From Acidobacteria bacterium UBA2994 (GTDB lineage: Bacteria > Acidobacteriota > Vicinamibacteria > Vicinamibacterales > UBA8438), in the NCBI GenBank assembly GCA_002346545.1, contig DEAA01000044.1, positions 19,344 through 83,343 on the forward strand: 64,000 nucleotides of DNA, given 5' to 3'. Below, one piece after another: positions 2,575-11,309 of this stretch (positions are counted from its first letter, which is position 1; every line of letters begins with the position of its first letter). A program made the translations under genes and the position numbers. Below the pieces are notes generated by a model that worked only from the letters and a program-made list of their open reading frames with translations, was not told the DNA's origin and ran no database searches.

Positions 2575-2934
2575 TCAGCTCAGGAACGCCGGCACCCGGT
2601 CACGCGGACGTCCGACGATCGCCTTACCACCGCGCACGATGACCGGGCGCTGGAGCAGCGCCGGATGACGCTCCAGCACAGCCACCACCGCGGCAGCGTT
2701 CCCTTCGTAGTCAGCCGGATCAAGCCCAAGCTTCTTGAACTTCGAGTCCTTCCGCACGAGATCCTCGACGGGATCTTCGAGCATGCCGACCAGCGCCTCG
2801 AGCTGCGTCCGATCCGGCTTCTCCTTCATGTAGAGAATGGTGTGGTACGGCACCCCGTTGTCCTTGGCGACCGCCAAGGCATAGGCGGAGGTACTTCAAT
2901 GCGGGTTGTGGTAGATGGTCGCCGGTGTCCTCAT
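2575..2934 (-). CDS. ArsC/Spx-family oxidoreductase, candidate selenoprotein (UGA at 2896-2898)
   Basis: Reading from ATG at 2934, preceded by AAGGAG four bases upstream, gives M-R-T-P-A-T-I-Y-H-N-P-H, then UGA, then S-T-S-A-Y-A-L and an open frame to 2575. Counting UGA as residue 13, the product is 119 residues, the usual family length. T-I-Y-H-N-P-x-C-x-T-S is the active-site loop of glutathione/glutaredoxin-type arsenate reductase ArsC, and the UGA falls exactly on the catalytic Cys. Downstream family features are intact: L-V-R-K-D, H-P-A-L-L-Q-R-P-V-I-V and G-R-P. A perfect hairpin follows the UGA. I infer selenocysteine at residue 13. A shorter frame from TTG at 2877 would lack the active site. 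The gene starts 26 bases after the GH3 gene and is probably co-transcribed with it. Substrate (arsenate or another oxidised thiol/anion) is unproven. A sequencing error, TGA for TGC, is the main alternative. Confidence 0.8.
2862..2879 (-). promoter_or_regulatory. Candidate bacterial SECIS hairpin
   Basis: On the minus strand CCTTGGC-GGTC-GCCAAGG forms a perfect 7-bp stem with a four-base loop. The loop begins with GG, and its first G lies 24 nucleotides after the UGA. A 16-nt spacer (2880-2895) separates the UGA from the stem. Known bacterial SECIS elements have a short apical loop with a G in its first two positions, roughly 16-37 nt after the UGA. The Escherichia coli fdhF element also exposes GGUC in its loop. 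The fit is close, but SelB binding is not shown. Confidence 0.7.
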
Positions 2935-2960: not shown

Positions 2961-4793
2961 TCACCGGGCAGCACGGGTCAGGCCGTGGCCAATCGGATAC
3001 TCGCCAAGCGCGATCGGGAGCCGGCCGGTAATGGGCGCCTCGCCGGTGATCGCGCGAACAGCGCTGGTCTCAGCAAGCGTGTAGAAATCGTAGGTTAGTA
3101 GCGTTGCCGGCAGCTCGGGCATGAAGGTGGCGGCATACGGGTTCCCGAAGAACACGGTAACGAACGGGACATCGCGCACCTCGGTGCGGCGGGCCACCGT
3201 GCGGAGGAAATCCTGCAGCTGGGACTCGAGATCCATGCGGCCGCTGTAGGACGCGGTCCGGACGAACACCGACGCCACCACCGCGTCGTAGGCACCGAGG
3301 TCGGCCCGCACCACGGCTAGTTCGCCGGACGTGGTCCGGTCGGACAGCTCCATCGCCGTCACGTCATCCCAGCGGGCGCGAAGCTCTGGTAAAAACGTGG
3401 CGCTTGGCGCGCCATGCCCCCAACCGGTTGGATAGTCGACCACCGAAAGATAGAGCACCGACGCGTCCCGAGGCACCCGTAGTGGTACGCTCCCGCGCTC
3501 GTCCTTCAGCAGCGTGATGCCACGCCGACTCACCTCGGCCGCGACCTCACGATGGGCGCGGCTGCCGACCAGGTCCGGCACTTGATCGAGACTGACCCGC
3601 CGGCTACCGTGGAGCCCCAGCGCTGCCTTGGCCTCGAGAATGCGCCGGACAGATCGATCGAGGCGTGCCTCGGAGATGGTGCCATCCTCGGCGGCGGCCT
3701 TGAGCGCGTCGAACGCCACCACGTCATCCGGCGAGTGGATGACCACATCGTGACCCGCAACCACGGCCTGCACCGCGGCCACACCAGGCGAAGCGAGCTC
3801 GGTCACCGCGCGCATCCGCATCGAGTCGGTATAGATCAGTCCGTCGAACCCAAGCGTGTTACGGAGGAGCCCCGTGACTACGGGCGGGCTAAGAGTGGCG
3901 GGACGAGAGGGCTCCGGGTCAAGCCCGGGAAGCTCGATGTGCGAGGTCATGACCGCCCCGGCGCCCGCGGCGATGCCAGCCCGGAACGGCGGCAGCTCGA
4001 TCCGTTCAAGCCGCGCGCGAGGATGCGGAATTAGCGGCAGGCCGAGATGCGAGTCAACGTCGGTGTCGCCATGCCCCGGAAAGTGCTTGAGCGTGGCCAC
4101 CATACCCCCGTCCTGCAGGCCGCGGACATAGGCAGAAGCAAGCCGCGATACAACATCCGGATTCTCGCCGAACGAGCGGGTGTTGATAACCGGGTTGCGC
4201 GGGTTGTTGTTGACGTCAGCCACCGGCGCGAAGTTCACGTGCACGCCAAGGGCGCGCGCTTCGAGCGCCGTGATCCGCCCGGCCTCCACCGCAAGGGCTT
4301 CGTCACCCGCGGCGCCGAACGCCATGGCGCGGGGAAAAGTCGTGGCCCCACCAATCCGGAAACCGACGCCGGTCTCGAAGTCGGCCGCGTTGAGCAGCGG
4401 GAGCGCCGACTCGGCCTGCAATCGATTGTTAGTGGATGCGGCCGCCAGCGGCTGGCCAGGAACACCGCGCGGATAGCCACCGCCGAGCAGGACGTTCGGG
4501 GCGGGCAACCGGCCGGCGAAGAGCAGAAAACCGCCAACGTGCTGTTCACGCACGAGCGACACGAGCCGGTCGTGGCGGTCACTGTCGTTACTGAAGTAGG
4601 TGGTGCGGAACGACGGCATGAGTAGCTGACCGATCTTCTGGTCAAGCGTCATGCCGTCCAGCGTCGAACTGACCCATCGGGCGGCCACCGGGCCAAGCTC
4701 TGGCGTCGCCGAGGGGCGGACGAGCGCCGCCGCGACGAGCGCCAGGACCAGCGCCGGAAGGGCTCGCACGCGCATCCGAGGATGGTAGACCAT
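2961..4793 (-). CDS. Secreted glycoside hydrolase family 3 (beta-N-acetylhexosaminidase type)
   Basis: About 610 residues. An N-terminal signal peptide (R-A-L-P-A-L-V-L-A-L-V-A-A-A) precedes the GH3 catalytic barrel (about 40-380) and the GH3 C-terminal domain (about 410-600). The NagZ-type signature K-H-F-P-G-H-G-D-T-D-V-D-S-H near residue 235 carries the His-Asp acid/base dyad. Y-T-D-S-M-R-M near residue 318 supplies the nucleophile Asp. NagZ-like enzymes remove N-acetylglucosamine from muropeptides. With a signal peptide this one acts outside the cytoplasm. The ATG at 4793 directly follows the upstream stop (TAAATG), suggesting translational coupling. An ATG at 4775 would also give a signal peptide. 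Confidence 0.85.
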   Translation of the reverse strand: MVYHPRMRVRALPALVLALVAAALVRPSATPELGPVAARWVSSTLDGMTLDQKIGQLLMPSFRTTYFSNDSDRHDRLVSLVREQHVGGFLLFAGRLPAPNVLLGGGYPRGVPGQPLAAASTNNRLQAESALPLLNAADFETGVGFRIGGATTFPRAMAFGAAGDEALAVEAGRITALEARALGVHVNFAPVADVNNNPRNPVINTRSFGENPDVVSRLASAYVRGLQDGGMVATLKHFPGHGDTDVDSHLGLPLIPHPRARLERIELPPFRAGIAAGAGAVMTSHIELPGLDPEPSRPATLSPPVVTGLLRNTLGFDGLIYTDSMRMRAVTELASPGVAAVQAVVAGHDVVIHSPDDVVAFDALKAAAEDGTISEARLDRSVRRILEAKAALGLHGSRRVSLDQVPDLVGSRAHREVAAEVSRRGITLLKDERGSVPLRVPRDASVLYLSVVDYPTGWGHGAPSATFLPELRARWDDVTAMELSDRTTSGELAVVRADLGAYDAVVASVFVRTASYSGRMDLESQLQDFLRTVARRTEVRDVPFVTVFFGNPYAATFMPELPATLLTYDFYTLAETSAVRAITGEAPITGRLPIALGEYPIGHGLTRAAR

Positions 4794-11112: not shown

Positions 11113-11118
11113 TATACT
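11113..11118 (+). promoter_or_regulatory. Possible -10 box of the cobalamin-regulated operon
   Basis: TATACT, five of six consensus matches, lies a few bases before the start of the riboswitch fold, as expected if transcription starts at about 11125. The -35 region is not recognisable. Confidence 0.35.
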
Positions 11119-11124
11119 TCGCCC

Positions 11125-11292
11125 TCTTTCGACGCTCCCCGGTTGGCAAGGGAAGTGGGTGCGAAGCCCACACGGTCCCGCCACTGTAAGCGAGGAGCGG
11201 TTCGGTACCCGGCCTCCGGGCCCGCCACTGCGCACCGCGTGGGAAGGCGCCACCGAGCCGCGTTGATTCGCGAGTCAGGAAACCTGACCACC
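11125..11292 (+). promoter_or_regulatory. Cobalamin (B12) riboswitch
   Basis: The leader contains the conserved elements in order. First comes AAGGGAAGTGGGTGCGAAGC at about 11149-11168. Then comes the core CCCGCCACTGTAAGCGAGGA at about 11177-11196, which includes the GCCACTG box. Last is GTCAGGAAACCTGACC, the closing P11-type hairpin with the family's GTCAGGA..CCTGAC pattern. Together these define the cobalamin riboswitch class. It precedes btuD-btuC-btuF-otsB and, further down, a TonB-dependent receptor. It should switch expression off when adenosylcobalamin is abundant. Confidence 0.93.
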
Positions 11293-11309
11293 GGGTTCGT
11301 CCTTTCGCA

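What the first reader, a model, noticed from the sequence alone, without database searches (positions are those of the whole stretch)
2575..2934. Selenocysteine codon at the catalytic position of an ArsC/Spx-family protein
The minus-strand frame from ATG 2934, with AAGGAG upstream, is open for 119 codons except one UGA at 2898-2896. That UGA replaces the catalytic cysteine in the loop T-I-Y-H-N-P-x-C-x-T-S, and family motifs on both sides are intact. A random stop would rarely land on the one residue that selenocysteine typically replaces. The gene would be missed or truncated (TTG 2877 start) by standard gene callers. Sec-containing ArsC-like sequences have, as I recall, been noted in marine metagenome surveys. 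A chromosomal case beside a GH3 gene is worth confirming.
Basis: partly seen in the sequence, partly recalled or inferred. Interest (0 to 1): 0.9.

Follow-up and report, generated by a model that had tools for sequence, protein, structure and literature searches.

The report
Selenocysteine version of an arsenate-reductase-like enzyme
A small ArsC-type gene in an acidobacterium very probably reads its one internal stop codon as the rare amino acid selenocysteine at the catalytic position; the gene looks real and would be truncated by standard gene calling, but this type of selenoprotein has been known from ocean surveys since 2005.

Summary
Confirmed. The minus-strand frame 2934-2575 is open except for one UGA (2898-2896) at the catalytic position of an ArsC-family (PF03960) protein, motif HNPH-U-STS. 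The genome carries selA, selB, selD and a tRNA-Sec with anticodon TCA. A 7-bp hairpin with a GGUC loop begins 16 nt after the UGA and meets published bacterial SECIS rules. Of 39 distinct homologous loci scored, 8 (this one and seven at 45-92% identity) have TGA at this codon and 31 have TGC/TGT. Six of the 8 keep the hairpin in register with all pairs formed; two do not. Five of 17 AhpC-TSA matches in the genome also have one in-frame TGA, at the redox motif. Three arginines aligned with R60, R94 and R107 of E. coli ArsC are kept, so a monoselenol arsenate reductase is likeliest, but that is inferred: the TIGR00014 cut-off is not met and no complete ACR3 pump was found. The kind is known: 'Arsenate reductase, UxxS', Sargasso Sea 2005 and GOS 2008. 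New member of a known kind.

The parts
2575..2934 (-). Sec-containing ArsC-family gene, 119 residues read with UGA as Sec; terminates at its own UGA 2577-2575
   Evidence: PF03960 54.5 bits, cut-off 24
2896..2898 (-). UGA codon read as selenocysteine (residue 13), catalytic position
   Evidence: aligns with Cys12 of E. coli ArsC chain 1jzw
2862..2879 (-). bacterial SECIS-like hairpin: stem CCUUGGC (2879-2873) with GCCAAGG (2868-2862), apical loop GGUC (2872-2869); 16 nt between UGA and stem, 23 nt between UGA and loop
   Evidence: rules in PMC13188914
2939..2944 (-). Shine-Dalgarno-like AAGGAG, 4 nt before ATG 2934
   Evidence: read directly
2752..2754 (-). codon of Arg61, equivalent of R60 of E. 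coli ArsC (oxyanion-binding role recalled)
   Evidence: invariant in the 36 sequences of A2; alignment
2647..2649 (-). codon of Arg96, equivalent of R94 of E. coli ArsC
2608..2610 (-). codon of Arg109, equivalent of R107 of E. coli ArsC
2961..4793 (-). upstream glycoside hydrolase family 3 gene, 26 nt before the ArsC start; possibly co-transcribed; recognised only in two of the seven other UGA loci
   Evidence: PF00933 302 bits; neighbouring frames listed

Best explanation
It is a selenoprotein of the ArsC family (UxxS type). The UGA at 2898-2896 is decoded as selenocysteine by the cell's own SelA/SelB/SelC/SelD system, directed by the hairpin that begins 16 nt downstream. Likely chemistry, inferred: the Sec13 selenolate attacks arsenate held by Arg61, Arg96 and Arg109, and the Se-As adduct is resolved by an external thiol system (glutaredoxin or a small thiol), because the protein has no cysteine of its own. 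Shown by computation: gene structure, conserved UGA, hairpin, sel genes, fold family, conserved arginines. Not shown: Sec insertion itself, and arsenate as the substrate (I put arsenate at about 0.55; the confidence below is for Sec decoding of an ArsC-family gene).
For: Frame and motif. selC RF01852 69.9 bits, gathering 47, ARAGORN tRNA-SeC anticodon TCA. selB 346 bits for its two pieces, cut-off 242; selA 443 bits, cut-off 268; selD 292 bits, cut-off 125, on the window's contig. TGA in 8 of 39 distinct loci, Cys codons in the other 31. Hairpin in the same register in 6 of 8, all 42 pair cells paired, 2 of 7 pairs changed on both sides. Synonymous resampling reaches an in-register stem as long in 401 to 1537 of 50000 draws for each of those six. 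Five of 17 AhpC-TSA matches in the same genome have one in-frame TGA, at the redox motif. The gene ends in UGA itself and 29 of 48 long stop-to-stop frames (300 codons or more, not all of them genes) of the window end in TGA, so UGA does not look globally reassigned. AF2 model mean pLDDT 93.5, best PDB matches ArsC enzymes. G054, the one Cys-type match among the 60 relatives, has no selA match.
Against: No peptide or 75Se evidence. The window's own fold is only modestly better than shuffles (z -1.69, 13 of 200 as good). The covariation sample is six sequences and 27 of 500 shuffles reach each of its measures. By folding energy against synonymous resampling L023 is not unusual (0.34 of draws as good), nor are L024 (0.11) and L025 (0.36). 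L024 and L025 keep the UGA but not this hairpin; their best simple hairpins are 7 and 6 bp elsewhere. A 7-8 bp simple stem somewhere in the stretch is not rare: 6 of 31 Cys loci have one. TIGR00014 scores 86.9, below its cut-off 106.05. No complete ACR3 arsenite pump was found, only a 40-residue C-terminal match below cut-off. The selA match is split by a run of N, so its intactness in this genome is not shown. sel genes are so common in the order that their presence is a weak test.
Confidence: 0.93

Rival explanations
1. A pseudogene or a sequencing error: the UGA is a recent nonsense change or a misread Cys codon and the gene is dead or ordinary.
For: TGC or TGT is the codon in 31 of the 39 distinct homologous loci scored, and one base separates them from TGA.
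Against: The same UGA stands in seven other loci, 45-92% identical. Against L022, 59 downstream codons show 13 synonymous and 4 non-synonymous differences; the 7 codons before the UGA are identical in L022 and differ by 3 synonymous and 2 non-synonymous codons in L023 and by 4 and 1 in L028.
Confidence: 0.02
2. The real product starts downstream (TTG 2877) and is a 100-aa protein without the catalytic residue, as gene callers imply.
For: 47 of the 120 listed database proteins are called from a start after the UGA.
Against: AAGGAG precedes ATG 2934 and no such motif is seen before TTG 2877. The codons before the UGA are conserved as protein. TTG 2877 lies inside the conserved hairpin stem. Such a protein would lack the first strand (residues 5-9) and the catalytic loop of the model.
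Confidence: 0.03
3. UGA is read as another residue (Trp, Gly or Cys) by a code change or a suppressor.
For: 12 of the 120 listed homologues carry Trp at this place in the databases, most simply from gene callers that used a TGA=Trp code; their DNA was not seen.
Against: UGA ends this gene and 29 of 48 long stop-to-stop frames of the window; a Sec system is present; the hairpin fits a bacterial SECIS.
Confidence: 0.02
4. It is a selenoprotein but not an arsenate reductase: another ArsC/Spx-fold selenol oxidoreductase, for example one acting on a different oxyanion or on protein thiols. (This rival shares the Sec claim with the best explanation, so the two confidences are not exclusive.)
For: Below the TIGR00014 cut-off; no full ACR3 in the genome; none of seven window neighbours scanned matched an arsenic family, though four of the seven matched no Pfam family at all; its clade is separated from classical ArsC with SH-aLRT 99.
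Against: All three oxyanion arginines invariant in 36 aligned sequences; closest solved relatives by sequence and fold are ArsC. Other arsenite pumps (ArsB and others) were not searched for.
Confidence: 0.4

Closest known systems
Arsenate reductase UxxS selenoprotein (Sargasso Sea 2005, PMC1088965; 'ArsC 1', GOS 2008, PMC2398784; the review PMC13188914 lists it under TIGR00014, example MBT3519430.1)
   Same: COG1393/PF03960 family, Sec in the catalytic position, motif UxxS (here U-S-T-S), SECIS-like hairpin after UGA, Cys homologues exist; a near relative of the window's protein (P0004) carries a 'tara' source label
   Different: Nothing in kind that I could find. Here the gene sits in a genome bin with all four sel genes and with relatives. 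The published sequences themselves were not compared (no accession could be opened here).
Arsenate reductase 2 / NF041106 arsenate-reductase-like selenoprotein (UxxC)
   Same: ArsC family, Sec in the same position
   Different: Has a second Cys (UxxC). NF041106 is not among the matches of P0001 listed at E up to 10. Genes with UGA at the catalytic place of a UxxC motif occur in the same order: L071-L074.
E. coli ArsC (PDB 1i9d, 1jzw)
   Same: Fold, catalytic position, three arginines
   Different: Cys12 instead of Sec; about 30% identity over the structural alignment.
Spx/MgsR transcription regulators
   Same: Same fold
   Different: Lower score: TIGR01617 48.6 bits, cut-off 75.05; Spx proper has CxxC (recalled), here UxxS.

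Membership tests
Bacterial selenoprotein gene | In-frame UGA at a position held by Cys in homologues | tested here: met
   TGA in 8 of 39 distinct loci, TGC/TGT in 31
Bacterial selenoprotein gene | SECIS: apical loop 3-9 nt, upper stem 4-16 bp, G in first two loop positions, 16-37 nt from UGA to loop, MFE at most -7.5 | tested here: met
   loop 4 nt GGUC, stem 7 bp, 23 nt, -15.3 kcal/mol on 34 nt; rules from passages of PMC13188914. bSECISearch itself was not run
Bacterial selenoprotein gene | selA, selB, selC, selD in the genome | tested here: met
   selA interrupted by a run of N
Bacterial selenoprotein gene | Sec present in the protein | not testable with these tools
   needs mass spectrometry or 75Se
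ArsC family (PF03960) | score over the gathering cut-off | tested here: met
   54.5 bits, cut-off 24
TIGR00014 arsenate reductase (glutaredoxin), equivalog | score over 106.05 bits | tested here: not met
   86.9 bits
R773-type (E. coli plasmid) arsenate reductase | catalytic Cys12 position with R60, R94, R107 | tested here: met
   Sec13 in place of Cys, R61, R96, R109; the role of the arginines is recalled
R773-type (E. coli plasmid) arsenate reductase | reduces arsenate with glutathione/glutaredoxin | not testable with these tools
   two glutaredoxin-domain matches exist in the genome; glutathione synthesis not searched
UxxC ArsC-like selenoprotein NF041106 | match to the family model, UxxC motif | tested here: not met
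   not listed at E up to 10; motif is USTS
Spx regulator (TIGR01617) | score over 75.05 bits | tested here: not met
   48.6 bits

The most novel reading that the evidence does not exclude
The UxxS ArsC clade is primarily a selenocysteine lineage (SH-aLRT 99 against classical ArsC), with Cys forms as side branches, and members such as this one, which has no cysteine at all, catalyse a selenol-only reaction on an oxyanion other than arsenate or with an unusual partner thiol.
Probability: 0.15. Interest if true: 0.55.

Novelty: new member of a known kind. Interest (0 to 1): 0.32.

Why it matters
It gives a published metagenomic selenoprotein family a genome context with the full sel system, a SECIS element supported by comparison, and a set of relatives. 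It also suggests how widely the family is mis-annotated: of the 120 listed relatives 47 start after the UGA and 12 carry Trp at the Sec place (DNA of these not seen). The phrase search (six phrases, open-licence PMC papers only) found no paper on a Sec-containing ArsC enzyme, so its chemistry looks like an open, testable question.

Tried and rejected
Pseudogene, sequencing error, downstream start and code change were weighed and rejected (see rivals). The GH3 neighbour as a functional partner was set aside: one search prints frames with their first 40 residues only; by resemblance an upstream same-strand GH3 frame is seen in the window, L027 and L023 and in none of the other five loci, some of which are short on that side. 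A broken selA was suspected from the split match; searches show a run of N between the pieces instead, and the same-genus genome has an unbroken selA match. A second tRNA-Sec candidate (47.8 bits, just over the gathering score) is tRNA-Ser by ARAGORN. The in-register stem count used an offset wrong by one base; one search repeats it correctly, and only the free energies are used. Association of Sec-ArsC with sel genes is weak as a test because 52 of 60 relatives have selA and 47 of 60 have selB over cut-off. Among the five UGA-ArsC genomes, selA matches in 5 of 5 (4 over cut-off, G024 a fragment of 127 bits), while selB is over cut-off in 2 of 5 (G000, G008), with fragments in G001 and G024 and nothing convincing in G025 (65% complete). 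One note (one search's successor) says 26 of 34 loci have Cys; the recount is 30 of 34. The tree used 148 rows: of the 120 listed database proteins all 12 Trp rows but only a numbered subset of the truncated (31 of 47) and of the Cys rows; loci L089 and L099 were dropped because the match does not reach the residue, L074 and L096 because tblastn missed them, and short matches (L026, L059) were left out. It has 119 columns and many open forks and cannot root or date the Cys/Sec changes. The Rfam scan of the window found only a cobalamin riboswitch.

Full report
OBSERVATION. The minus-strand frame from ATG 2934 to the stop at 2575 is open for 119 codons except for TGA 2898-2896, and AAGGAG stands 4 nt before the ATG. 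Read through, the protein is a PF03960 ArsC-family protein (54.5 bits, cut-off 24). The UGA aligns with Cys12 of E. coli ArsC in the printed alignment to chain 1jzw. In this frame ORF calling leaves only a 100-aa TTG ORF.

CONSERVATION. tblastn over the loci held (41 rows; L021 repeats the window and L027 contains L022, so 39 distinct loci) gave TGA at residue 13 in 10 rows, 8 distinct loci, and TGC/TGT in 31. Of the 34 loci found in genome contigs, 4 have TGA and 30 Cys. Record titles of the four named TGA loci are an uncultured Acidobacteria bacterium (L027, 92% identical), an Acidobacteria MAG (L030), a Kofleriaceae MAG (L029) and a record called Acidimicrobiaceae whose isolate name says Acidobacteriota (L028). 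L022 (G001, same genus as the window's genome) lies inside L027, so the window's organism is an acidobacterium by inference. In the order of the window (162 genomes) 16 have a match; 9 of these 16 have one TGA: five of the UxxS type, all in the window's family, and four of the UxxC type (L071-L074). In a phylum-wide sample (396 genomes) 93 have a match; only fetched loci were inspected, and among them TGA stands at the catalytic place in L082 (UxxS), L092 (two genes) and L096 (UxxC). Other one-TGA rows were not looked at, and in L099 the TGA was not located.

MACHINERY. The genome (96% complete, 82 contigs) has tRNA-Sec (RF01852 69.9 bits; ARAGORN tRNA-SeC, anticodon TCA), selB (346 bits with both pieces), selA (443 bits) and selD (292 bits, on the window's own contig). 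The selA match is split by a run of N; that is a gap in the sequence and says nothing for or against the gene. The genome also has 17 AhpC-TSA matches, five with one in-frame TGA, which stands at the redox motif in the translated frames. So the cell has other selenoprotein candidates to decode. Sec machinery is widespread in the relatives: selA over cut-off in 52 of 60 and selB in 47 of 60. The one relative of these 60 with a Cys-type match, G054 (a partial match at a contig end), has no selA match.

SECIS. From the UGA, 16 nt lead to CCUUGGC-GGUC-GCCAAGG. The published bacterial model asks for a loop of 3-9 nt, a stem of 4-16 bp, G in the first two loop positions, 16-37 nt from UGA to loop and MFE at most -7.5 (PMC13188914, passages); all are met (4 nt, 7 bp, G first, 23 nt, -15.3 on the 34-nt stretch). 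Six of the 8 UGA loci have it in the same register; all 42 pair cells are standard pairs, 2 of 7 pairs change on both sides, and sliding the partner drops pairing to 24-64%. Shuffling controls are modest (27 of 500 reach each measure) with six sequences. Synonymous resampling with local codon use gives as long an in-register stem in 401-1537 of 50000 draws per sequence; the six are related, so these must not be multiplied. By folding energy the same kind of control gives 0.004-0.026 for five of the six but 0.34 for L023. None of the 31 Cys loci shows the GGUC hairpin at that place in the printed stretches; in two (L048, L054) a 6-bp stem ends at the same base with another loop, and 6 of 31 have a 7-8 bp simple stem elsewhere. 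Against: L024 and L025 lack this hairpin (best simple hairpins 7 and 6 bp elsewhere), and the window's own fold is only z -1.69.

FUNCTION. Arg61, Arg96 and Arg109 are invariant in the 36 sequences that I chose for A2 and align with R60, R94 and R107 of E. coli ArsC; that these hold the oxyanion is recalled knowledge. The AF2 model (Cys in place of Sec, pLDDT 93.5) matches ArsC structures best (E 4e-9), with Spx from E 6.5e-7 on. The protein has no cysteine, so the Se-substrate adduct would have to be resolved from outside; the genome has two glutaredoxin-domain matches. Against an arsenic role: TIGR00014 cut-off not met; only a 40-residue ACR3 piece below cut-off; none of seven window neighbours scanned matched an arsenic family, four of them matching nothing. 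ArsB-type pumps and glutathione synthesis were not searched.

EVOLUTION. In a quick tree of 148 rows an 86-row clade with SH-aLRT 99 holds the 8 UxxS UGA loci, the 31 truncated proteins used, the 12 Trp-labelled proteins and 35 Cys proteins. L082 and the UxxC UGA genes lie outside. With every row that is not Cys taken as a UGA gene, the Cys label needs 7 changes, and starred branches force at least 4, so Cys and Sec have been exchanged more than once in the family; the direction is not resolved. The Trp-labelled and truncated proteins are taken as UGA genes by inference; their DNA was not seen.

WHAT IS KNOWN. The Sargasso Sea paper (PMC1088965, passages and tables seen) lists arsenate reductase as a new selenoprotein family with 14 sequences and motif UXXS. 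The GOS paper (PMC2398784, passages) lists ArsC 1 (pfam03960, UxxS, 77) and arsenate reductase 2 (UxxC, 42). The 2006 survey (PMC1794560, passages) lists 2 ArsC-like selenoproteins, and 4 selenoproteins in Acidobacteria. The 2022 and 2026 reviews (PMC9312934, PMC13188914, passages) list both types. A phrase search for a Sec-containing arsenate reductase found 0 papers; it covers open-licence PMC papers and six phrases only. So this is a new member of a known kind: well supported, usefully placed in a genome, not a new class.

Noticed in passing
window 11113-11305 (+): Cobalamin riboswitch RF00174, 79.8 bits.
   Followed up: no
own genome C53, C57, C14, C82, C50 (L104, L105, L107, L108, L114): Five AhpC-TSA family genes with a single in-frame TGA at the redox motif (for example FTGG-U-TAQC, SAVW-U-PYC): further selenoprotein candidates of this genome.
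   Followed up: partly
L092 (G299, same phylum): Two ArsC-like UxxC genes about 0.9 kb apart on one strand, each with UGA at the catalytic place.
   Followed up: no
L082 (G501, same phylum): UGA at the catalytic place of a protein (HNPG-U-SKS) that falls among classical Cys ArsC proteins in the tree: probably a separate Sec/Cys exchange.
   Followed up: partly
own genome C11:3000-10192 (L115): Short contig with the last 40 residues of an ACR3-like pump abutting a stretch that reads like a sulfate permease, near a ParA-like ORF (these last two names from reading the translations, no family search): mobile, chimeric or contaminant DNA.
   Followed up: no
database proteins P0021, P0023, P0031, P0032, P0035, P0040, P0052, P0054, P0076, P0088, P0106, P0121: Homologues recorded with Trp at the catalytic place, most simply UGA genes translated with a TGA=Trp code; DNA not seen.
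   Followed up: partly
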